DNA from: Rhodanobacteraceae bacterium
GTDB lineage: Bacteria > Pseudomonadota > Gammaproteobacteria > Xanthomonadales > Rhodanobacteraceae
Direction of reading: 5' to 3'
Assembly: GCA_009996615.1 (NCBI GenBank)
Contig: JAACZU010000005.1
Location: forward strand, 186,001 to 250,000
DNA: 64,000 bases
Program-made: the position numbers and the translations under genes
Part shown: one piece after another, positions 17,058 to 36,406 of the stretch
How positions within the stretch are numbered: position 1 is the first letter of the stretch
How the letters are laid out: the number at the start of each line of letters is the position of its first letter
Notes under the pieces: generated by a model
Database searches by the model: none
What the model saw: only the letters and a program-made list of their open reading frames with translations
Told to the model about the DNA's origin: nothing

Positions 17058-17573
17058 TCAGCCAGCGGCCGGCTGCGCGCCGGCCGCCCACAGCATCAGC
17101 AGCGAGCGCGCCGCGCGCAGGTCGCGCTTGGCCGTCACCGGCGCGATGTCGAGCGCGGCCGCGATCTCGCCCAGCGGAATGCCGCCGAGGAGATGCCATT
17201 CGATCACGTCCGCCTTGCGCGCATCGACCTCGCGCAGACGGTCGAGCAGCGCCAGCAGGTCGAACGCTTCGGGGCCGAGCGACGTGGCCGCGGGCTCGGC
17301 GTCGCTGCGCAGCAGGTCCGCCACGCCGCCACGCTTGAGCGCATTGCGGCTGCGCGCATGGTCGATCAGGACCTGGCGCATCGCGCGCGCGGCGGTGCGG
17401 AACAGGTGGGCACGGTCCGAATACGTGTGTGATCCGTGCAGCTTCAGCCAGGCCTCGTGGACCAGCGCCGTCGTGTCCAGCGTATTGCCCTCGCCGCGGC
17501 GCAACTGCCGCGCGCGGCGCTTGAGCTGCTGGTACAGCTCGACGAACAGGACGTCGGAAGGGGCTTCGCGCAT
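17058..17573 (-). CDS. ECF-type RNA polymerase sigma factor (TIGR02999-like)
   Basis: A 171-residue ECF sigma factor. Sigma-70 region 2 (about 10-80) contains DTTALVHEAWLKLHG and the HLFRTAARAMRQVLIDHAR segment typical of the TIGR02999 subgroup. Region 4 (about 110-165) holds the helix-turn-helix GGIPLGEIAAALDIAPVTAK. ATG at 17573 follows the kinase stop by 25 bp, so the pair should be co-transcribed. In this subgroup the neighbouring serine/threonine kinase commonly belongs to the same signalling unit, in place of a classical anti-sigma factor. The target promoters are unknown. Confidence 0.88.
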   Translation of the reverse strand: MREAPSDVLFVELYQQLKRRARQLRRGEGNTLDTTALVHEAWLKLHGSHTYSDRAHLFRTAARAMRQVLIDHARSRNALKRGGVADLLRSDAEPAATSLGPEAFDLLALLDRLREVDARKADVIEWHLLGGIPLGEIAAALDIAPVTAKRDLRAARSLLMLWAAGAQPAAG

Positions 17574-17598
17574 CCGGCCAGCGTAGCAGGCCGGCGGC

Positions 17599-19971
17599 TC
17601 AGCGTTGGCGGGCGAGCGCCGTCTGCAGCAGCGGCAACGGCAGGCGCGCGGCGCGCTCCACGCGCGCGTCCGCAGGCCACGGCGCGAGCCGCCGCATCGC
17701 GGCCGCGTCGCGACCAAGTCCCAGCTCGGCCTCGGCCGCGGTGAAGACGAAATCCTCGCGCGCCTGCGCCGCCTCCGGCACCTGCGCCGCCAGTGCGAGC
17801 AAGCGCTCGGCGGCCGCCAGCGCCGGCGCGTAGCGCCGTCCGTCGAGCTCGGTCAGGGCGATGAACCAGCCGTTCTCGAGCCGGCGTGCGATCGGCGCCT
17901 GCTGCCGTTGCAGGATCGCCTCGACCGCGCGGTAGGCGGCGACCGCGTCCGCATGACGGCCGAGTCCGACCAGCGCCCGCGCGCGCAACTGGCGCAACTG
18001 CACGCCGTTGGACGAATCCGCGCCGTGCAGGCGGTCGCCCTCCGGCAGCAGCCGCTCGGACAGTGCGAGCGCATCGGCGTACCGGCGCTGGCGCGTCAGC
18101 AGGTAGAGCTGCGACAGCGCGACGTGGTGGGCGAGCGCACGCCAGCGCGCGGGCTGGCTGGCGGCTTGGGCAGCCGCCTCGGCGAGGTGGCGGTCCGCCT
18201 CGTCGAACTGCTCCAGGTAGATCAGGAAGTGGCCGAGGTCGGCCTGGACCTGCACGCCGAGCGAGCCCTGCTCCGGTCCGAGTCCGAGGGCGATCGGCAG
18301 CGCCTCGCGTAGCCCTTCGACGGCCGGCTCGTAGCGATGGTCCCAAGCCTCGGTGCTCGCCTGCACGCGCAGGGCAGTCACCAGCGCCAGCCGACCTTCC
18401 GAGCCCGCCGCGCGCGCCAGCGCGACCGCCATGCGCGAATGCTCGCGCGCGGCATCGAAGTGTCCGTCGGCGCGCTGCAGTTCCGCAAGGTAACTCAGTA
18501 CCAGCGCGCGCTCGGCCGCGTCGCCGTCCGCGCCAGCGCACGCTTCGAGCAGCGGGCGCGCGGCGCCCAGTTCGCCGATCTGGTCGAGCGCAGCGGCGAT
18601 ACGGTTGGCCAGGCGCAGCCGCACGGCCGGGGCCAGGCCCGAGCGCGCCTGCAACTGCTGCACGGCATCGAGCAGCACCTCGCGCGCCGTGAGGTCGCGA
18701 CGGTTCGAGGCGTACGGGTCGGCGGCAGTGAACAGCGCACCGAGCACGTCGCCGACCGCCTGCGCCGTGGCTGCCTCCCCGGCCGCGCGCGCCGCCTGCG
18801 TCTCGGCCTGGCGCTGCGCCAGTTCGGCACGCCGGGCGTTGCGCCAGGTGCCGTGGATGCCGGTGGCAGCGGCGGCCAGCGCGAACGCGCCGAGCGCCAG
18901 TGCAAGGCGATGGCGCGCCACGAAACGCCAGGCGCGATAACTCCAGCGCGCCGGCCGTGCGGCGACCGGGCGGCGCGCGCGCCAGCGCGCGAGATCGGCG
19001 GCCAGCGCGGCGGCGCCTGCATAGCGGTCCTCGACGCGCTCGGCGGTCGCCTGTTCGAGGATCGCCGCCAGGTCGGTGCCGAGGCGCTGGCGCCAACGCG
19101 TACGCGGCACCTCGCGCAGGCGCGCGTCGAACAGCACCTCGCCGAGCAGCACGCCGAGCTGGTAGACGTCGGCGGCCGCGCCGACCGGCTCGCCGCGCAG
19201 CTGCTCGGGCGCGGCATAGCCCGGCGTCCGCGGCACCCAGCCCGCGCTGGTGTCCTCGCCGTCCGCATCGTCGAGCAGGCGCGCGATGCCGAAATCGAGC
19301 AGGCGCACGCGCCCGCCGTCGTCGACCAGCACGTTGGCCGGCTTGATGTCCCGATGCAGCACGAGGCGCCCGTGCGCATAGGCGACGGCCGCGCAGACAT
19401 CCTCGACCAGCGTGACGCGCGCGGCGCGCGGCGGACGGGCGCGGCGTACCCACTCGGTAATCGGCTCGCCCTCGACGTATTCGATCGCGAGCCAAGCCTC
19501 CCCGTCCGGCTCGATGCCGCCGTCGATCAGGCGCGCGATCGCCGGATGCTCCAGCCGTGCAAGGATGCTGCGTTCGCGCAGGAAGCGCCGGCGCGCCACC
19601 GGCGACGACGCCGGCGCATGCAGGCGCTTGAGCGCCACGCGCTGCGCGAAGCCAGCCTCCGCGCGCACCGCTTCCCACACCTCGCCCATGCCGCCGCGGC
19701 CGAGCGCTCGCACCAGCACGAACGGGCCGATCGGCTGGCCCGCGCGCAGGGCGTCGTCGTCGATTCGGCGCAGCAAGGCTTCGTGCAGGATGCCGTCCGC
19801 CGGCTCGACCGGCGCCTGCGCGTCGACCCGCAGCATCGCCTCGACCAGCGCGGCCAAAGCCGGATCCTCGTCGCGCAGGATCGCCAGCGCGGCAGCCTGC
19901 GCGTCGCCGTCCAGATCGCCCAGGCGGTCGAATTGCTCCATTGCGCGGCGCTGGCGTTGTACCTCGTTCAT
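17599..19971 (-). CDS. Membrane-anchored serine/threonine protein kinase with TPR-like C-terminus
   Basis: A 790-residue Hanks-type kinase. Kinase domain about 80-335: glycine loop GRGGMG (91-96), VALK lysine 115, catalytic HRDIKPANVL (206-215), DFG 226-228 and APE 254-256 are all present, so it should be active. One transmembrane helix at about 353-372 puts the remaining 400 residues outside the cytoplasm. These are alpha-helical, Ala/Leu-rich and TPR-like. An acidic N-terminal extension (1-79) resembles that of kinases paired with TIGR02999 sigma factors. The sigma-factor gene follows at 25 bp. Confidence 0.92.
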   Translation of the reverse strand: MNEVQRQRRAMEQFDRLGDLDGDAQAAALAILRDEDPALAALVEAMLRVDAQAPVEPADGILHEALLRRIDDDALRAGQPIGPFVLVRALGRGGMGEVWEAVRAEAGFAQRVALKRLHAPASSPVARRRFLRERSILARLEHPAIARLIDGGIEPDGEAWLAIEYVEGEPITEWVRRARPPRAARVTLVEDVCAAVAYAHGRLVLHRDIKPANVLVDDGGRVRLLDFGIARLLDDADGEDTSAGWVPRTPGYAAPEQLRGEPVGAAADVYQLGVLLGEVLFDARLREVPRTRWRQRLGTDLAAILEQATAERVEDRYAGAAALAADLARWRARRPVAARPARWSYRAWRFVARHRLALALGAFALAAAATGIHGTWRNARRAELAQRQAETQAARAAGEAATAQAVGDVLGALFTAADPYASNRRDLTAREVLLDAVQQLQARSGLAPAVRLRLANRIAAALDQIGELGAARPLLEACAGADGDAAERALVLSYLAELQRADGHFDAAREHSRMAVALARAAGSEGRLALVTALRVQASTEAWDHRYEPAVEGLREALPIALGLGPEQGSLGVQVQADLGHFLIYLEQFDEADRHLAEAAAQAASQPARWRALAHHVALSQLYLLTRQRRYADALALSERLLPEGDRLHGADSSNGVQLRQLRARALVGLGRHADAVAAYRAVEAILQRQQAPIARRLENGWFIALTELDGRRYAPALAAAERLLALAAQVPEAAQAREDFVFTAAEAELGLGRDAAAMRRLAPWPADARVERAARLPLPLLQTALARQR

Positions 19972-20002
19972 GCGCCGATCCTAGCCGAGGCGACGGGACG
20001 CT

Positions 20003-21562
20003 TCAGTAGGCGCGCTCGAAGCCGTCGTCGAACAGGCGATCGGCGCCGCGCACGCGCAGCAGCAGCACGTCGTGGTTAATGTTGCCCGGGTCGTTGGCGT
20101 CCAGCTGGCGGTCGCCGGCGATCACCGGGCGCGTGTCGTCGAGCATCAACGCCGCGCCCCAGTGCCGCCGCGATTCGCCCACGCTGCTGTTGAAGGCGTA
20201 GCGCTTGAAGGCATCGCCAAACGACAGCGGGCTCGGCACGTATGGGACACCGCCTTGATCGGTGCGCTGCAGGCGCCCGAGCAGCACGTCGCTGTAGATC
20301 GCACTGCCCTGGCTGCGCCAGCTCCCGGCCATCCACAGCTGGCGACTGGCGCGGTCGTAGACCGCACTGGTGACCAGGCACGATTCGCGCACCTGCAACG
20401 CCGCCAGGGACGCGCAGAAGCGGTCGATCGACTGGAACAGCGCACCCTGCGCCATCAGCGCGCCGCTCGCCGGGTCGATCGGGATGCGCTCTAGCGACGG
20501 ACGGAACAGCGCGCCGCTGCCGTCGTCGCCGTCACTCTCGTTCAGCAGCACGAGTGCGGCGGCGTCGAAGCCGAGCGAGCCCGGGCCGGTCTCGAACGCG
20601 AGGCCACCGACGCTGGCGTGGTTGGCGTCGGACAGCGCCGGCACGACGATCTCCTCCATCGGCGTCAGCGCATCGTAGCGGCGCAGCAGGGCACGCCGCG
20701 GCGCGCCTGCGGGCTGGTAGTCCCAGGCGAGGAAAAAGTCATAGGCGCCCGCGCCTGACGAGCGCGAGAAGTGCACCTTGCGCGCCGCCTCGTAGTCGCC
20801 ATCCGAGGTCACGTCGTGGAACACCGGCGCATCGAAGGGCGTGCCGGCGAACACGTCCTTGCCGGCGTCGTCCATCAGCGTGAACGCGCCATTGGTCGGC
20901 GCCGCCGCCGCACTACCCTGCCGGTAGGTCAGCGCGGTCACGACCCAGCCGGTGCCGGGCTGCACGTCGATGTCGGACACTTCCGCGCCCCAGGTCGGGG
21001 CGCTGGCGTGGTCGGCGATGCTGCAACCCACGCCCTGCGGCGAGCTGCCGCCGTAGCCCCAGGTCTTGAACGTCGCATCCGGCGTGCCGTCCACGCCGAT
21101 GCGGCAGACCACGACCACGCTGTCGCCTGCGCTGGCCTGCACGCTGAACGCGTAGTACAGCTTGGCGGTGCCGTAGAGCACGGGACCGGCCACCTGCAGC
21201 ACGCCGTTGTGGCGCAGGACGCGGCCGAGGTCGCCCGGCGCGCCGAACGAGGTGTCGCGCGTGCCGTCGGCGTTCAACCGCACCAGGCCGACGCGGCCGC
21301 CCGCTCCGGGGTTGACCAGCGCGGCGACCAGGTATTTGCCCGAGGGCAGGCGGGCGATGCCGCGCGCGACGTCGAAGCCGCCGCCCAGGTTGTCGAAGTC
21401 GACCGTGGCCGAGCCCTGCCCGATGCCGCCGTTCAGCGCCGGCACGGTACCGACGTTGAAGCGCTGATCGAGGTCGGCATCGGCCGCGCGTGCCACCACT
21501 GGCAGCAGCGCCACGGCGGCGGCGAGGACGCGCGCGGACACGCGCAAGGAAAGAGTGTGCAT
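20003..21562 (-). CDS. Secreted delta-60-repeat (DUF5122-like) protein with RLFDDGFE tail
   Basis: A 519-residue exported protein with signal peptide 1-26 (VVARA/ADA). The N-terminal part (27-150) shows delta-60-type repeats: LDQRFNVGT, ARGIARLPSGKYLVAA, VRLNADGTRDTSFG. The rest is beta-rich and propeller-like with few recognisable motifs. The extreme C-terminus reads DRLFDDGFERAY, closely similar to the tails of two secreted proteins at 31945-36406. It lies downstream of the S46 peptidase gene in the same direction (135-bp gap). Function unknown; a surface or extracellular role is inferred from the signal peptide. Confidence 0.75.
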   Translation of the reverse strand: MHTLSLRVSARVLAAAVALLPVVARAADADLDQRFNVGTVPALNGGIGQGSATVDFDNLGGGFDVARGIARLPSGKYLVAALVNPGAGGRVGLVRLNADGTRDTSFGAPGDLGRVLRHNGVLQVAGPVLYGTAKLYYAFSVQASAGDSVVVVCRIGVDGTPDATFKTWGYGGSSPQGVGCSIADHASAPTWGAEVSDIDVQPGTGWVVTALTYRQGSAAAAPTNGAFTLMDDAGKDVFAGTPFDAPVFHDVTSDGDYEAARKVHFSRSSGAGAYDFFLAWDYQPAGAPRRALLRRYDALTPMEEIVVPALSDANHASVGGLAFETGPGSLGFDAAALVLLNESDGDDGSGALFRPSLERIPIDPASGALMAQGALFQSIDRFCASLAALQVRESCLVTSAVYDRASRQLWMAGSWRSQGSAIYSDVLLGRLQRTDQGGVPYVPSPLSFGDAFKRYAFNSSVGESRRHWGAALMLDDTRPVIAGDRQLDANDPGNINHDVLLLRVRGADRLFDDGFERAY

Positions 21563-29840: not shown

Positions 29841-31778
29841 TCAGCCGGAACCGGAGGGCCCGCGCGGGGCGGCAGCGGTGGCGCCGGCCGCCGGCGCGCT
29901 CCGCTGGCCTCCTGCGGCGACGATATCGGCCCGCGCCGCTTCCAGCTGCACCGAATAGCGCTCGCCCATCAGGGCCCGCCCGCGCTCGAAGGCCTGCTCG
30001 GCCTGCGTCAGGTTGCCCTGGCGCGCGAGGTATCGCGCCTGGAGCAGCAGATACAGATAGCCGTCCTTGGCCGGCAGCGACGCCTCGCCCAGCAATGACT
30101 CCACGCTGGCCAGGTCGCCGGTGTGGAACAGCGCGTCCGCGTAGTCGGCCAGCATCTGCTGGTTCTGGGTACCTGATCGCCGGGCCAGTTCCCACACGCT
30201 GCGGAACAGCGTCGCCGCACGTTTCCAGTCGCCGTCCGCGCCGGCCAGCAGGGCCTGGGCGTGATCGGCGTATTGCTCCAGGGCCGGGGTAGTCCGCGCG
30301 AGCGCGCGGATTTGCTCCTCCTCGCCTCGCGCACGCGCCAGGTCGCCCGCATTGAGCGCCGCATAGACGAGGGCCAGGTGCAGGCTGACCGGGGGTGCCC
30401 CGAGGGGGCTGGCCAGATCGAGGCGCAATGCCGTGTCCCACGCTTCGATGGCCTCGCGGAAGCGGCCGCCCGCCGCCTCGATGAAGCCGAACAGGCTCAT
30501 CAGCTGGACTTGCTGCTGCGGATGGCGGGCCACCGTTCCTTCGTCCAGGGCCCGATGCACGGTCTCGCGCGCATTAGCGATGCGTCCGAGCTGCAACTGC
30601 GCCCAGGCAAGGCTGTCGAGCGCATCACGCGCCGCCCCCGGCACCTGCTGCTGCGCCGCCGCGCGCACCGCGACCTCGGCCGCGGCCAACGACTCCTCGA
30701 AGCGCCCGAGGTGCCCCAGCGTATGGGAGCGGATCGCATGCGCCCGGGCCAGCCGCGCGAAGTCCCCCGTCCGCTCGAACGCCGCGATGGCCACGTCCAG
30801 GTGCGTGAGCGCCTCGTTCCCGCGCCCCTCCCGGCCGGCCGCGATACCGAGCACGTAGGCGCTGTCTCCGGCCGCGTTGGTGTCGCCCGCGCGCTCGGCC
30901 AGGGTCTTGGCGCGTTGCGCAAACCGGCGTGCATCATCGTTCTGCCGCTCGGCCAGGGCCAGCGTCGCCCGCAAGACGGCCGTGCGCGCCTGCGCTTGGA
31001 CGTCCACGCCCTGCGCTTCGGCCGCGTCGAGGTCGCGCCGGGCCGCGGCGAACTCGAGCGTGTCGATGCCGACGGCCGCACGCGCCTGCAGGCAGCGCGT
31101 GCGCAGGGCGGCGGTAAGGTCGCCCGACAGCAGCTCGTCCAACGCGCCGAGGCAAGCCTCATCCAGGGCGCAGCGCGCTTCGGCCAGTTGCACCGCCACC
31201 TCGGACGAACCGGGCGTTTTCCGCTGCGCCTGCTCGAGCGCGAGCCGCGCCTGCGCGACACGGCCGGAGCGGATCAGCTCGGCGGGCGAGACGGCCACGC
31301 CCGCTTGCCGCCGCACCGCATACGCGACGACCAGGGCACCGATGAATACCGCGAGGAGCAGGACGATCGCGCCGATGCGACGGGTCGGGGCCTCCACCGC
31401 CGCGGCCCTGCGAGGGGCAGGGGCCGCCGGGGCGTCCTCGCCGGCAACGGCATCGGGAGGCGCCACCTCGCGTTCCTCGGTCGGCGCGATCCAGCGATAG
31501 CCGTGGCGAGGCAGCGTGCGGACATAGCGCGGGGCATTGCCGTTGTCCTCGAGCACGCGCCGCAGGCGCAGCACGGCTTGCGCGAGGGCACCGTCGGCCA
31601 GTTCGGCGCGCCCCCAGACGGCGGCGATCAGCTCGTCGCGGCCGACCGCGCGGTCCCGATGCGCGACCAGGTAGGCCAGCAGGTCGAACACCTTCGGCTC
31701 GACCGGTACCAGGACATCGCCCCGCCAGAGCTCGCGTTCCGGCACGCTCAGGCGGAAGGAATCAAACAGATAGCTCAC
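29841..31778 (-). CDS. CadC-like winged-helix regulator with transmembrane and TPR region
   Basis: A 645-residue one-component transmembrane regulator. Residues 3-98 are an OmpR/PhoB-type winged helix (FDSFRLSVPERELWRG; EPKVFDLLAYLVAHRDRAV; ALAQAVLRLRRVLEDNG; VRTLPRHGYRWIAP). An Ala/Pro-rich linker leads to one transmembrane helix (about 136-154). The remaining 490 residues are TPR-like helical repeats, predicted periplasmic, presumably the sensing part. The start is GTG at 31778; no strong ribosome-binding site is visible. It diverges from the secreted-protein operon at 31945 across 166 bp, so it is the obvious candidate regulator of that operon (inference). Confidence 0.85.
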   Translation of the reverse strand: MSYLFDSFRLSVPERELWRGDVLVPVEPKVFDLLAYLVAHRDRAVGRDELIAAVWGRAELADGALAQAVLRLRRVLEDNGNAPRYVRTLPRHGYRWIAPTEEREVAPPDAVAGEDAPAAPAPRRAAAVEAPTRRIGAIVLLLAVFIGALVVAYAVRRQAGVAVSPAELIRSGRVAQARLALEQAQRKTPGSSEVAVQLAEARCALDEACLGALDELLSGDLTAALRTRCLQARAAVGIDTLEFAAARRDLDAAEAQGVDVQAQARTAVLRATLALAERQNDDARRFAQRAKTLAERAGDTNAAGDSAYVLGIAAGREGRGNEALTHLDVAIAAFERTGDFARLARAHAIRSHTLGHLGRFEESLAAAEVAVRAAAQQQVPGAARDALDSLAWAQLQLGRIANARETVHRALDEGTVARHPQQQVQLMSLFGFIEAAGGRFREAIEAWDTALRLDLASPLGAPPVSLHLALVYAALNAGDLARARGEEEQIRALARTTPALEQYADHAQALLAGADGDWKRAATLFRSVWELARRSGTQNQQMLADYADALFHTGDLASVESLLGEASLPAKDGYLYLLLQARYLARQGNLTQAEQAFERGRALMGERYSVQLEAARADIVAAGGQRSAPAAGATAAAPRGPSGSG

Positions 31779-31944: not shown

Positions 31945-34812
31945 ATGAACGTGTGGACTGCAAGGCCGGCCGTGCGCTGGCTGGTTGCCGCGATGGCAAT
32001 GACGGCCGCTGGCTGGGCCCATGCCGCAGGCGACCTGTGGCGCGACCGGACCGTGATCGGCACGCTGCCGTTCAGCGAAAGCCTGGACGCGAGCACGGCG
32101 AGCGAGGAGGGTACCGACCCTGTCCTCAACTGCTTCGTCGGTGCCGCCGGCAGCAGTGGACGGGCCACGGTGTGGTACCAGTACACGACGGGCGACAGCA
32201 CCGAGTACGTCAACATCTCCACCCAGGGCAGCGGCTATGACACGATCGTGGCCGTCTACACGGGCGCCCCGGGCGCGTTCCGCCTCGTCGCCGGCGGCTG
32301 CAACGACGACGGTGTCGGTACCACGCAGTCGCGCATCGCCGGCCTGCGCCTGGCGCCGCGCACGTCCTACAGCATCGAAGTCGCCTCGCATGGCACCGTG
32401 ACGGCCGGCGGATCGCTGGCCTTCGCCGTGACGCCCGCCCCGCTCTATGTCGTCAACCGCCAGGACGATCCCAGTCCGGCGGTCTCGGGCTGCACCGCGG
32501 CGGCCTGCACGCTGCGCTCGGCGATATCGGCGAGCAACGCCGTGCCCGGCGCCGTCATCGTGCCGGCCGGCACGTACACGATCGCCCTGGGCGCGAGCGG
32601 CGAGGACGCGAACGCCGGCGGCGACTTCGACATCCGCTCCGGCATGTCGATCTACGGCGCCGGCGCGGACCAGACGATCATCGATGCGAACCAGAAGGAC
32701 CGCATCTTCGACATCGACCCCGACGGCTTCGGCGCCCCCGCCACCGGCCGCGTCACCGCGCTGATCGCCGACCTTGCGCTGGTCAACGGCGGCGGCTCGT
32801 CGTTCTACGGCGACGGTGGCGCGATCCGTGCCTACAGCGGCAGCTCGAGCGCGCTGGTCAACAACGACTTCGTGGTCCTCGACCATGTCCGCATCCGCGC
32901 CAGCCGCTCGCAGCTGAACGGCGGCGCCGTGGCGTTGTCGGCGCGCGGGCAATTCATCGGCTGCGAGTTTTCCAGCAACTACGCCAACAGCACCGGCGGC
33001 GCGCTGACACTCGGGCCGTCCTTCGCGGGCGGCGACACCATCATCGATCTGATCGACAGCACGGTGGAGGGCAACCAGTCGCCGAGCAGCTTCAGCGGCG
33101 GCGGCGGCATCAAGAGCACGGCGCGCCTGCGCGTCACGAACTCGACGATCGCCAACAACACCAGCGGCTACCACGGCGGCGGCGTCTACTCCACCGGCAC
33201 CGGCACGCTCGAGCTGCGCAGCAGCACGGTCGCCAGGAACGTGGCCGCCAGCGGTGGCGGCACGTCCAACGGCGGCGGCATCCGGCTCGACAACGGGACG
33301 CTGATCGTGGCCAACACGATCCTGTCGGGCAACACGCGCGGCGGCGCCGCCGGCACGGCGGACGATTGCACGGCGGCCGCCGGCACGCTGACCGCGAACT
33401 ACTCGCTGCTCACGGCGGCGTCGGGATGCACGTTCAACGGCGGCAACAACATCCTCGGTGTCGATGCGGCGTTCGACGGCAGCATCGGCGACCACGGCGG
33501 ACCGACGCGCACCCTCGCCCTGGCCAGCACCAGTCCCGCGATCGATGCCGCCGATCCGCTCGGCTGCACCGGCGCGGGCGCGGCGCCGCTGGAATTCGAC
33601 CAGCGCGGTACGGGCTATCCGCGCAGCGTCAACGGCCGCTGCGACATCGGTGCGTACGAGGCCAGTTCGACGCGACCCGACGCGCCCGGAACGCCGCACC
33701 TGGATCCGGCGTCCGATACCGGCGCGTCCTCGAGCGACAACGTCACCGCGGCCACCAGCCTGCGCTTCATGGGCGTGTGCGATGGCAGCGACGTCATCAC
33801 CCTGCTGGTCGACGGCACGCCGGCCTCGCCGACGGACAGCTGCATCGCGGGCGCCTACGACATCGTGCTCGGCAGCCTGCCGCCGGAAGGCCCGCACGCG
33901 ATCGCGGCGACCGCGACGCGGGGCGGCGCGACCTCCGAGCCGTCGGCCAGCGTATTGGTCGTGCTCGACCGCACGGCGCCGCTGATGACCATCACCAGCG
34001 GCCCCGCGGGCGACGTCATGCAGGCCGACGCCAGCTTCGCGTTCGGCACGGACGATGCGATCACGGTCGAGTGCTCGATCGACGCCGGCGCATTCGTGGC
34101 CTGCAGCAGCCCCGTGGCCTACGGCGGCCTGGCGGTCGGGCCACACGCGTTCCGGCTGCGCGGGACCGATCTTGCCGGCAACAGCGGCGAAGCGAGCCGC
34201 TCGTGGACGGTCGTCGCCCCGAATGCGCCGTCCCGGCCGCTCCTGCAGTCCGGCAGCGACACCGGGCGCTCGCCGAGCGACGGCATCACGAATGCGCTGG
34301 CCCCGGTGTTCGACGGTACCTGCCTGGCCGGATCGACCGTGCGTTTTTATGTCGATGGCGCTCCAACCGCAGTGACGACCGCCTGCATCGACGGCACCTA
34401 CAGCAGCGCGCAGGCAGTGGGCGAGGGAACGCATGAGGTCGCCGCGACCGTCACGGCCGGCAACATCGAAAGCGCGCCCAGCACCGCCACCATCGTCGTC
34501 ATCGACCGCACGTCCCCGGCAGCCCCGGTCCTGGCGTCGCCGCTTCCGCAGAGCACGGTGGCGCCGCGGCTGGCGATTGCCGGCAGCGCCGAAGGCGATG
34601 CCGACGTCGAGGTATTCGACGGCAACACGGTCGCGTGCTCGTCCGTGGCCGACGGCGCTGGCCACTGGACGTGCAATGCGATCCTGGCGTCCGGGCAACA
34701 CGTCCTGAGCGCGTTCGCGACCGACGTGGCGGGCAATCGCAGCAGCGCCTCGGCTCCGGTGACCGTCGAAGTCGATCGGGTCTTTGCCGACGGTTTCGAT
34801 GGCAGCCCGTGA
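31945..34812 (+). CDS. Secreted CSLREA/beta-helix protein with Ig-like domains and RVFADGFD tail
   Basis: A 955-residue exported protein with signal peptide 1-28 (GWAHA/AGD). Order: a PPC-like beta domain (30-150; VWYQYTTGD, YDTIVAVYTGAPG); a CSLREA-type motif (CTAAACTLRSAISASNAVPG, about 185-205); a right-handed parallel beta-helix with an outlier-protein (choice-of-anchor Q) core (about 205-570; repeated N-x-GG, STVEGN, STIANN turns); then three or four bacterial Ig-like domains (about 575-940; repeated DRT(A/S)P strands). The C-terminus is DRVFADGFDGSP. ATG at 31945 follows an AAGGGGG site. First gene of an operon; next start 19 bp downstream. Probably surface or extracellular; ligand unknown. 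Confidence 0.82.
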   Translation: MNVWTARPAVRWLVAAMAMTAAGWAHAAGDLWRDRTVIGTLPFSESLDASTASEEGTDPVLNCFVGAAGSSGRATVWYQYTTGDSTEYVNISTQGSGYDTIVAVYTGAPGAFRLVAGGCNDDGVGTTQSRIAGLRLAPRTSYSIEVASHGTVTAGGSLAFAVTPAPLYVVNRQDDPSPAVSGCTAAACTLRSAISASNAVPGAVIVPAGTYTIALGASGEDANAGGDFDIRSGMSIYGAGADQTIIDANQKDRIFDIDPDGFGAPATGRVTALIADLALVNGGGSSFYGDGGAIRAYSGSSSALVNNDFVVLDHVRIRASRSQLNGGAVALSARGQFIGCEFSSNYANSTGGALTLGPSFAGGDTIIDLIDSTVEGNQSPSSFSGGGGIKSTARLRVTNSTIANNTSGYHGGGVYSTGTGTLELRSSTVARNVAASGGGTSNGGGIRLDNGTLIVANTILSGNTRGGAAGTADDCTAAAGTLTANYSLLTAASGCTFNGGNNILGVDAAFDGSIGDHGGPTRTLALASTSPAIDAADPLGCTGAGAAPLEFDQRGTGYPRSVNGRCDIGAYEASSTRPDAPGTPHLDPASDTGASSSDNVTAATSLRFMGVCDGSDVITLLVDGTPASPTDSCIAGAYDIVLGSLPPEGPHAIAATATRGGATSEPSASVLVVLDRTAPLMTITSGPAGDVMQADASFAFGTDDAITVECSIDAGAFVACSSPVAYGGLAVGPHAFRLRGTDLAGNSGEASRSWTVVAPNAPSRPLLQSGSDTGRSPSDGITNALAPVFDGTCLAGSTVRFYVDGAPTAVTTACIDGTYSSAQAVGEGTHEVAATVTAGNIESAPSTATIVVIDRTSPAAPVLASPLPQSTVAPRLAIAGSAEGDADVEVFDGNTVACSSVADGAGHWTCNAILASGQHVLSAFATDVAGNRSSASAPVTVEVDRVFADGFDGSP

Positions 34813-34831
34813 TCGCACAGGAACCCAATCC

Positions 34832-36406
34832 ATGACCCGCTCCATCACCCCCCGCCTTGGCCGCAGGCTGCTCCTTGCGGCGCTGCTCCACGGCGCCGGC
34901 GCCGCCGCGTTGCCGCTCGATGATCTGCCGCCCGAGCTGGCCAGGCGGCTGGCCGGCCCGGCATCCGCCAGCCACTTCGGGGCGAGCCTGGCCGCCGTCG
35001 GCGACTTCGACGGCGACGGCTACCTCGACATCGCCATCGGCGCGCCGTCGCAGGCTCGCGGCGGCGCGCAGGGCGCCGGCGCCGTCTACGTGGTCTATGG
35101 CACTTCGATCGGCATTCCGTCTCCGGACTTCGATGACCCGCAAAGCCCGTGGGTCAGCCGCATCGAAAGCGCCAGCGCGGGCTCCGGCACCGCGCTCGGC
35201 GTCAGCCTTGCCGCGACCGGTGACATCGATGGCGATGGTCGCGACGACCTCGCGATCGGCAGCGCGCTGGGCGAGTTCGGCGGATCGACGCCCGGCAAGG
35301 TGTGGATCGTGCGCGGGCGGCCAACGCGCGAGGCAACCATCGACGTCGACGCCGACACGCGGACCACGACCCTGACCGGGGAGGCCGCATCCGATGGCTT
35401 CGGCCTCGTGCTGGCCGGAGGGGGCGACCTCAATGGCGACGGTCGCCCCGACCTCGCCATCGGCGCCGTCTACGCCAATGGATTCAACGGCAGCACCTAC
35501 GTGCTGTACGGATCGAGCACGCCGCCCGCCAGCATCGGCGCGGCGGCACTTGACGGTGCTGCCGGCGTGACGTTCAGCGACTCCGGCGATTTCGACCTCT
35601 CCGGCATCTCGCTGGCACTCGGCGGCGACGTCAATGGGGACGGCATCGACGACCTCGTGATCGGCGCGCTCGGCCCCAACGATGCAGCCAGCAATTACGT
35701 CGGCGGCGCCTACGTCGTGTTCGGCCGTGCCGGCGGCTGGGGCGCGGGCGCCGTCGACCTGCAGGCACTCGCGGCCGGCCAGGGCACGCGGATCCTCGGC
35801 AGCTACTACGCCGCCAGCGGCGCGGACTCGGCCGGCAGCGCGGTGGCGATCCTGCGCGACCAGAACGGCGACCACATCGACGAGATCGTCGTCGCCGATC
35901 CGGATGCCAGCCCGCTGGGCCGGGGCCTGGCAGGTGCGGTCGGTGTCGTGTATGGATCCAGCACCCTGCCGGCCAGCCTGACCTTCGCCGACCTCGACGG
36001 GCAACGCGGCTACCAGCTCTTCGGCGCGGCCGGCGGTGACAAGTTCGGCAGCGCGCTGGCCCATGCCGATGTGAACGGCGACGGTATCGACGACCTTGCC
36101 ATTGCCGCCGTGCAGCGCGTCAACAGCACCTCGCTCGGCACCGGAAGGGTATTCGTGCACTTCGGCCGCAGCACCGAAATCGCCGCGCGCGACATGGCGC
36201 CCTGGCTCGGCGGCCGCGGCTACGGCGAGCTCTACACGCCGGGCAGCGGCACCGTGGATTTCGGCGAGCTGGCCGGCGCCTGCCGCGCGACCTGCCCGCC
36301 GGGCGCGCGCCTGCTGCTCGGCGCGGCATCCGACGGCACCGGCAACGGCACGGTCTACGTGCTTGAGCGCAGCGATCGCATCTTCGCAGACGGAGCCGAG
36401 CCGTGA
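34832..36406 (+). CDS. Secreted FG-GAP (integrin-alpha-like) beta-propeller protein with RIFADG tail
   Basis: A 524-residue exported protein. The signal region 1-24 contains an Arg-rich n-region and LLLAALLHGAGAAALP. At least six FG-GAP repeats are visible, each with a calcium-loop motif: GDFDGDGYLDIAIGAP, GDIDGDGRDDLAIGSA, GDLNGDGRPDLAIGAV, GDVNGDGIDDLVIGAL, DQNGDHIDEIVVADP, ADVNGDGIDDLAIAAV. Together they should fold as a seven-bladed propeller. The C-terminus is SDRIFADGAEP, like the preceding gene's tail. It starts 19 bp after the beta-helix gene, and its stop overlaps the start of the CpcT-like gene. Role unknown; adhesion or scaffold is inferred. Confidence 0.85.
   Translation: MTRSITPRLGRRLLLAALLHGAGAAALPLDDLPPELARRLAGPASASHFGASLAAVGDFDGDGYLDIAIGAPSQARGGAQGAGAVYVVYGTSIGIPSPDFDDPQSPWVSRIESASAGSGTALGVSLAATGDIDGDGRDDLAIGSALGEFGGSTPGKVWIVRGRPTREATIDVDADTRTTTLTGEAASDGFGLVLAGGGDLNGDGRPDLAIGAVYANGFNGSTYVLYGSSTPPASIGAAALDGAAGVTFSDSGDFDLSGISLALGGDVNGDGIDDLVIGALGPNDAASNYVGGAYVVFGRAGGWGAGAVDLQALAAGQGTRILGSYYAASGADSAGSAVAILRDQNGDHIDEIVVADPDASPLGRGLAGAVGVVYGSSTLPASLTFADLDGQRGYQLFGAAGGDKFGSALAHADVNGDGIDDLAIAAVQRVNSTSLGTGRVFVHFGRSTEIAARDMAPWLGGRGYGELYTPGSGTVDFGELAGACRATCPPGARLLLGAASDGTGNGTVYVLERSDRIFADGAEP

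What the first reader, a model, noticed from the sequence alone, without database searches (positions are those of the whole stretch)
34777..36406. Shared R-[LIV]-F-[AD]-D-G-[FA]-[ED] tail on three otherwise unrelated secreted proteins
The last residues of three exported proteins are nearly superimposable: DRVFADGFDGSP (gene ending 34812), SDRIFADGAEP (ending 36406) and DRLFDDGFERAY (gene 20003-21562). Their bodies are different folds: beta-helix/Ig, FG-GAP propeller and delta-60 repeats. A conserved tail at the extreme C-terminus after variable domains is how sorting or secretion tags look. It differs from PEP-CTERM, GlyGly-CTERM and Por signals because it has no hydrophobic helix, no basic cluster and no long domain. 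I know of no assigned function. If it is a tag, a dedicated exporter or anchoring enzyme should exist in the genome.
Basis: partly seen in the sequence, partly recalled or inferred. Interest (0 to 1): 0.75.

Follow-up and report, generated by a model that had tools for sequence, protein, structure and literature searches.

The report
Nine-residue address tag on secreted proteins
Dozens of otherwise unrelated secreted proteins in this bacterium and its relatives carry the same nine-residue tag, usually at the very end, which is probably an address label read by the cell's export machinery.

Summary
The tag is [DE]-x-[ILV]-F-x-[DN]-G-F-[DE]. The window's genome holds 61 DNA matches against 0 for the reversed pattern. 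Of 59 distinct sites read, 46 lie within 20 residues of the stop; 46 of 49 full-length carriers start with a signal-peptide-like segment. Carriers match 59 Pfam families; no listed hit is a tag model. The strict pattern occurs in 78 of 151 genomes of the order Lysobacterales, up to 93 copies each. In 388 genomes outside the order it occurs singly in 17, chance-like. Exosortase and rhombosortase do not fit. A type II secretion GspC with a PDZ domain co-occurs: 59 of 65 genomes with two or more tags, 13 of 73 with none; 5/5 versus 0/20 in the own family. I propose a linear recruitment tag for type II secretion. The tag is shown. Its link to T2SS is correlative, with two real exceptions and a confound (an ECF sigma family tracks the tags equally well). 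The PDZ step is inference.

The parts
31945..34812 (+). secreted protein 1: signal-peptide-like start, choice-of-anchor Q (beta-helix) region, Big_13 Ig-like domains, tag
   Evidence: start chosen at the ATG in front of the signal-peptide-like segment
34774..34800 (+). tag DRVFADGFD, followed by GSP and stop
34832..36406 (+). secreted protein 2: signal-peptide-like start, FG-GAP repeats, tag
   Evidence: model
36374..36400 (+). tag variant DRIFADGAE (A in place of F at position 8), followed by P and stop
20003..21562 (-). secreted protein 3: signal-peptide-like start, delta-60/DUF5122 repeats, tag
20015..20041 (-). tag DRLFDDGFE, followed by RAY and stop

Best explanation
The nine residues [DE]-x-[ILV]-F-x-[DN]-G-F-[DE] are a short linear sorting tag on proteins that cross the inner membrane by a Sec-type signal peptide. 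The tag is normally near the last thing in the chain, but can also stand at the mature N-terminus or between domains, so it works as an exposed flexible segment and needs no free carboxylate. In the periplasm it most likely recruits the folded protein to a type II secretion system for passage through the outer membrane. Shown: the tag, its position, its carriers, its distribution in the order and its co-occurrence with PDZ-type GspC. Inferred: passage by the T2SS. Speculative: direct binding to the PDZ domain.
For: Tag: 36 vs 1, 38 vs 2 and 61 vs 0 genome matches against the reversed pattern; 46 of 59 own sites and 76 of 81 sites sampled within 20 residues of the stop; all four Gly codons and both Phe and Asp codons used, so it is kept at protein level. 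Carriers: 46 of 49 full-length own carriers have a signal-peptide-like start. Many bodies are families that elsewhere use other sorting signals: choice-of-anchor Q in 7 of 47 and choice-of-anchor J in 3 of 47 carriers; a choice-of-anchor Q homologue outside the order ends in a GlyGly-CTERM-like tail (L325, by eye) and one in the own genome in a PEP/IPTL-like helix (L371, by eye). Machine: PDZ-type GspC in 59 of 65 genomes with 2 or more tags and 13 of 73 with none, Fisher p 4e-19 without correction for kinship; genus-level permutation within families p 6e-4; own family 5/5 vs 0/20. PDZ by Pfam in the own GspC and by alignment in 51 others read; the GspC tree largely follows the families, as vertical inheritance would give. 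The one genome with no GspD match (G019) has no tags. Literature: EpsC's PDZ is needed for VesB secretion and a disordered PelI loop binds OutC's PDZ (PMC12369372, passages and Discussion read); Xanthomonas XpsC has a single helix instead of a PDZ (PMC11981180, passages read).
Against: G063 and G097 (97 and 98% complete) have 14 and 8 degenerate-pattern matches (7 and 3 strict) without a detectable PDZ-type GspC (the G097 hit is a trypsin-plus-two-PDZ HtrA-type protease). Four more genomes with 2 or more tags lack it (G048, G059, G114, G118), but these are fragmentary or incomplete. Thirteen genomes have PDZ-type GspC and no strict tag, seven of them in one genus of f10; of eight re-searched with the degenerate pattern seven stay at 0 or 1 and G064 has 2. 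The copy number of ECF sigma family Sig-70_X6, no exporter, tracks the tags as well (57 of 64 genera, p 5e-5, threshold of 13 copies chosen by me), so lineage history may produce such links. PDZ-type GspC also occurs outside the order (V. cholerae, D. dadantii: PMC11981180), where the tag is not seen beyond single hits. Variable distance to the C-terminus and internal copies argue against classical C-terminal PDZ binding. I have no secretion data.
Confidence: 0.5

Rival explanations
1. The tag is a surface-retention or anchoring tag: after export it binds, or is joined to, an unidentified outer-membrane or surface component.
For: Carriers include choice-of-anchor families, whose name says that relatives carry varied anchoring signals. 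G063 and G097 have tag matches without PDZ-type GspC. PDZ-type GspC is not sufficient for tags.
Against: Exosortase is absent from G110, which has 93 tags, and rhombosortase over its cut-off occurs in only 1 of 65 genomes with 2 or more tags. No helix or basic cluster in the tag. No receptor found; I could not profile whole proteomes.
Confidence: 0.27
2. The tag is a processing or quality-control signal: a periplasmic protease or chaperone reads the exposed F-x-D-G-F segment.
For: The Asp-Gly pair and aromatic residues in an exposed tail would suit a peptidase or chaperone (inference). A PDZ protease of HtrA type is present in G097, which has tag matches and no PDZ-type GspC.
Against: Tags also sit just after the signal peptide and between domains, where cleavage would remove nothing or split the protein. 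The tag is order-bound, while such proteases are near universal (recalled).
Confidence: 0.1
3. The tag is a structural remnant: the first strand of a jelly-roll/choice-of-anchor domain (F-x-D-G-F-E-S-G-D-x-S-x-W, likeness recalled) or the last strand of each body, spread by recombination.
For: L105 and L312 continue into FETGDTSAW and FESGDVSSWS. About ten own internal copies are followed by a further stretch of 160-740 residues. Tandem tags occur.
Against: Conserved at protein level with free synonymous codons, on many unrelated bodies, mostly ending within a few residues; low-confidence end in the model of protein 2.
Confidence: 0.08

Closest known systems
GlyGly-CTERM / rhombosortase and MYXO-CTERM / myxosortase
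   Same: Many unrelated exported proteins of one genome share only a C-terminal signal; [quoted passage not shown] a choice-of-anchor Q homologue carries a GlyGly-like tail (L325).
   Different: No transmembrane helix, no basic cluster, 9 residues against 22 for GlyGly-CTERM (PMC3237569, passages read); rhombosortase is not matched with it; the tag may be internal or N-terminal. Myxosortase was not searched.
PEP-CTERM / exosortase
   Same: Many-per-genome C-terminal tag in Gram-negative bacteria.
   Different: No helix or basic cluster; exosortase is not detected in 31 of 65 genomes with 2 or more tags, including the one with 93.
Type II secretion determinants linked to GspC PDZ (PelI/Pel3 Fn3 loop 3, VesB Ig-fold)
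   Same: Exposed flexible segment on a folded periplasmic substrate, with an acidic residue needed in PelI; PDZ domain of GspC involved (PMC7949064 abstract and Discussion, PMC12369372 passages and Discussion).
   Different: Those are composite, substrate-specific structural signals; the authors of PMC12369372 note the lack of a linear universal signal. Here one linear motif recurs on dozens of proteins.
Type IX secretion C-terminal domain
   Same: C-terminal position on secreted proteins of varied folds.
   Different: The T9SS signal is a folded domain of about 70-100 residues in Bacteroidota (recalled); T9SS genes were not searched here.

Membership tests
PEP-CTERM / GlyGly-CTERM / MYXO-CTERM sorting signals | signature motif + transmembrane helix + basic C-terminus | tested here: not met
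   215 tags with 12 upstream residues: no hydrophobic stretch or basic cluster; 156 of 215 stop right after the nine residues, but that set is largely stop-anchored; in the unanchored samples 76 of 81 stop within 20 residues
PEP-CTERM / GlyGly-CTERM / MYXO-CTERM sorting signals | co-occurrence with the cognate sorting enzyme | tested here: not met
   exosortase in 34 of 65 genomes with 2+ tags and 20 of 73 tag-free; rhombosortase over cut-off in 1 of 65 and 9 of 73; myxosortase not tested
C-terminal sorting tag (general kind) | recurs on unrelated exported proteins, at the C-terminus, many per genome | tested here: met
Type II secretion substrate | Sec/Tat signal peptide | tested here: met
   46 of 49 full-length own carriers by a home-made rule; 55 of 68 in the loci
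Type II secretion substrate | T2SS present in the genome | tested here: met
   GspD match in 150 of 151 genomes, 144 over cut-off; own gspC, D, E, F on G000:C34
Type II secretion substrate | release depends on the T2SS | not testable with these tools
   needs a mutant
GspC-PDZ ligand | co-occurrence of tag and PDZ-type GspC | tested here: inconclusive
   strong association with real exceptions (G063, G097; 13 PDZ-GspC genomes without strict tags) and a confound (Sig-70_X6)
GspC-PDZ ligand | direct binding | not testable with these tools
   no complex prediction or assay available
Type I secretion signal | C-terminal signal on proteins without N-terminal signal peptide (recalled) | tested here: not met
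   carriers have signal-peptide-like starts

The most novel reading that the evidence does not exclude
A portable linear type II secretion signal: nine residues that, placed at either end or in a linker, route any folded periplasmic protein out through the T2SS by binding the PDZ domain of GspC, used by dozens of proteins per genome in many families of Lysobacterales.
Probability: 0.25. Interest if true: 0.93.

Novelty: new variant of a known kind. Interest (0 to 1): 0.8.

Why it matters
How a T2SS picks its cargo is an open question; two 2025 papers state that no conserved, or no linear universal, signal is known (PMC11981180, PMC12369372, passages read). A nine-residue tag carried by dozens of secreted proteins, mostly in lineages that keep a PDZ-type GspC, makes the question directly testable by deleting or transplanting nine residues. 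Even if the T2SS link fails, the tag is an apparently unnamed sorting signal of many families of one bacterial order and would let annotators list its exported proteins.

Tried and rejected
Exosortase (PF09721) and rhombosortase (TIGR03902) as the partner enzyme: neither fits. TIGR03902 matches rhomboids in all 151 genomes below its cut-off; I counted only the 12 over it. Plain presence of a T2SS as discriminator: GspD is nearly universal in the order, so only PDZ-type GspC separates. Classical C-terminal PDZ ligand needing a free carboxylate: rejected, because the distance to the stop varies and internal and N-terminal copies exist. A dedicated neighbour gene: the recurrent neighbours of tag genes are kinase-like proteins (13 of 119 loci) and ECF-sigma-like proteins (10 of 119) (named by eye). 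From the copy numbers I judge this about what their density would give, without a formal test, so I do not call it an association. A PDZ-GspC genus hiding a variant tag: the degenerate pattern gives 0 or 1 in the four genomes of that f10 genus re-searched. A longer hairpin in the GspC PDZ of most tag-rich lineages is only a lead: f10 genomes with 8-9 tags lack it and it follows phylogeny. Motif strings in the paper library: six strings, 0 papers; related searches listed nothing on it.

Full report
What was checked. The three bodies are unrelated: Big_13 plus choice-of-anchor Q, FG-GAP, and DUF5122/delta-60.

Genome scale. The window lies on contig C5 of a 3.91 Mb genome (G000). F-x-D-G-F-[DE] at DNA level gives 36 matches against 1 for the reversed pattern; D-x-[hydrophobic]-F-x-D-G gives 38 against 2; the degenerate [DE]-x-[hydrophobic]-F-x-[DNSG]-G-F-[DE] gives 61 against 0. 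I read 59 distinct sites; of the other two, I take one to be merged by my duplicate filter with an identical neighbour, and one (C6:18905) was not fetched. 46 of 59 end within 20 residues of the stop, 14 of them exactly at the last residue. Ten of the 59 are cut at the edge of the fetched stretch; of the other 49, 46 have a signal-peptide-like start (home-made rule, three misses). The remaining sites are informative: two own proteins (L036, and L449, whose body begins like a DUF1800 protein and matches that family) and one in genome G016 (L285) carry the tag just after a signal-peptide-like segment (L285 by eye), and about ten own proteins carry it well inside. So the tag is an exposed segment, not a strict C-terminal carboxylate signal.

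Other genomes. In three samples not anchored on a stop codon (loci), 30 of 31, 29 of 31 and 17 of 19 sites lie within 20 residues of the stop; one miss (L277) has only four residues in front and is probably not a gene. A logo of 215 distinct sites reads D at position 1, I/L/V at 3, D or N at 6 and E or D at 9. Those positions and the fixed F, G and F are set by the search patterns, and the set includes the stop-anchored loci, so it proves neither conservation nor position. What it does show is free codon choice: all four Gly codons (91, 56, 36, 32) and both Phe and Asp codons. Selection is therefore on the protein. Tandem tags occur in Marinicella (L223/L305) and in L143.

Distribution. The strict pattern is found in 78 of 151 genomes of the order, with up to 93 copies. 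In a draw of 398 genomes of the phylum, 10 belong to the order; of the other 388, 17 have one match each. Of those 17 loci, 16 are internal or in frames too short to be a gene, and one (L262, at a contig edge) cannot be told. Most of the listed titles are Lysobacterales (Dokdonella, Marinicella, Tahibacter, Chiayiivirga, Pseudofulvimonas and MAGs); others are MAGs named only to class or phylum. Odd titles are an Alcanivoracaceae MAG (L138, which looks like a real tag on a long protein), a Pelagibacteraceae SAG (L177) and a Bacillota MAG (L197); the last two have only 28 and 4 residues in front of the motif and are probably chance. No call names the own genus; Dokdonella is a guess from these relatives. 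G036 has the contig lengths of Marinicella litoralis KMM 3900, so its genus g36 is Marinicella.

Carriers. In the loci, 55 of 68 tagged ORFs against 126 of 459 other ORFs have a signal-peptide-like start; of 701 ORFs, 100 cut at a locus end and 74 shorter than 120 residues were dropped first, and the control set includes some spurious ORFs. 47 own carriers (46 with a signal-peptide-like start plus window protein 2; some with internal tags) match 59 Pfam families, none in more than 5 carriers. NCBIfam adds choice-of-anchor Q (7 of 47), choice-of-anchor J (3 of 47), and weaker resemblances to M36 peptidases named as myxosortase-, rhombosortase- or T9SS-dependent (scores against cut-offs not shown there). 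No listed hit is a model of the tag; searches list the 25 families with most members of 59 and 42, where a tag model would head the list, but a nine-residue model might miss the E-value limits. Of 21 own choice-of-anchor Q matches, the protein end was read for 20 (one runs off its stretch): 10 end in the tag, one has it inside (C8:67152), six end in near variants judged by eye (such as DTIFYGDFE, DRLLTDGFDG), and three have none, one of these ending in a PEP/IPTL-like helix (L371). A homologue outside the order (L325) ends in a GlyGly-CTERM-like tail. The tag thus sits where other lineages carry known sorting signals. In an AlphaFold model of window protein 2 (mean pLDDT 73.7, five sequences) the last two blocks, with the tag, have pLDDT 64 and 35, consistent with a flexible end but weak evidence.

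Which machine. GspD is present in 150 of 151 genomes of the order, but the five tagged genomes of the own family have, beside the common type (E about 1e-141 to 1e-149), a second one with E about 1e-168 to 1e-175 that the 20 tag-free ones do not show. The own copy lies with gspC, gspE and gspF on contig C34 (L353); that GspC is T2SSC plus a PDZ domain by Pfam. I searched GspC (TIGR01713) and read the hits of 33 loci and 20: 52 are GspC with a PDZ-like end by alignment, and the one from G097 is a trypsin-plus-PDZ HtrA-type protease. Taking E at or below 1e-9: 59 of 65 genomes with two or more tags have it, against 13 of 73 without tags (Fisher p 4e-19, kinship not corrected; the 13 genomes with exactly one tag are left out; with them, 70 of 78 against 13 of 73). 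By genus (majority of its genomes) 55 of 64 agree, p 6e-4 when labels are shuffled within families. In the own family it is 5 of 5 against 0 of 20. The GspC tree largely groups by family, as expected of an ancestral system lost in several lineages together with the tag.

Results against. G063 and G097 have tags or tag matches and no PDZ-type GspC; for G063 the strict loci read are genuine C-terminal tags, for G097 the loci were not read. Four fragmentary or incomplete genomes with tags also lack it. Thirteen genomes have PDZ-type GspC and no strict tags. The association is therefore support, not proof, and lineage history could create it. Exosortase shows a weak association (p 0.04 within families) but is not detected in 31 of 65 genomes with two or more tags; rhombosortase shows none.

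Mechanism. Proteins exported by Sec fold in the periplasm and expose the tag. GspC's second periplasmic region is thought to be a substrate docking site, and is a PDZ fold in some species and a single helix in Xanthomonas (PMC11981180, passages read). EpsC's PDZ is required for VesB and captures a reporter fused to VesB's Ig-fold, and a disordered PelI loop binds OutC's PDZ (PMC12369372, passages and Discussion read). The PelI loop needs Asp58 (PMC7949064, Discussion read). A flexible acidic-aromatic segment read by the GspC PDZ is therefore plausible; here it would be one shared linear motif instead of a composite structural one. GlyGly-CTERM and MYXO-CTERM proteins also leave by the T2SS (PMC11980579, passages read).

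Novelty. No paper in the held library contains the motif strings tried (six strings, 0 papers), and related searches listed none on it; most subscription papers, and preprints, are not held. I file it as a new family of C-terminal sorting tag without membrane helix. Whether it is the first linear T2SS signal is open.

Noticed in passing
window 17058-21562 (-): Tagged gene 20003-21562 is followed on the same strand by a protein kinase with weak TPR matches (17599-19971) and an ECF sigma factor (17058-17717) (Pfam): an operon-like tag gene / kinase / sigma module.
   Followed up: partly
window 29841-31778 (-): A regulator with a Trans_reg_C DNA-binding domain and weak TPR matches is divergent from tagged gene 31945-34812; a cluster of similar-looking regulators occurs in 4 of 119 tag loci (by eye).
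   Followed up: partly
G000 and order: Copy number of the Sig-70_X6 ECF sigma family tracks tag number across the order (Spearman 0.69) for no known reason.
   Followed up: partly
L036, L449 (own genome), L285 (G016): The tag directly follows the signal-peptide-like segment, at the mature N-terminus.
   Followed up: partly
L223/L305, L143: Tandem copies of the tag at one C-terminus.
   Followed up: no
L371 (G000:C7:77500-80500) and G000:C4:269564-270007: A choice-of-anchor Q protein ending in a PEP/IPTL-like helix (by eye), and an exosortase-like gene, in the same genome.
   Followed up: partly
L105, L312: The motif runs on into FETGDTSAW / FESGDVSSWS, resembling (from memory) the start of a jelly-roll domain; the tag may have arisen from, or mimic, such a first strand.
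   Followed up: no
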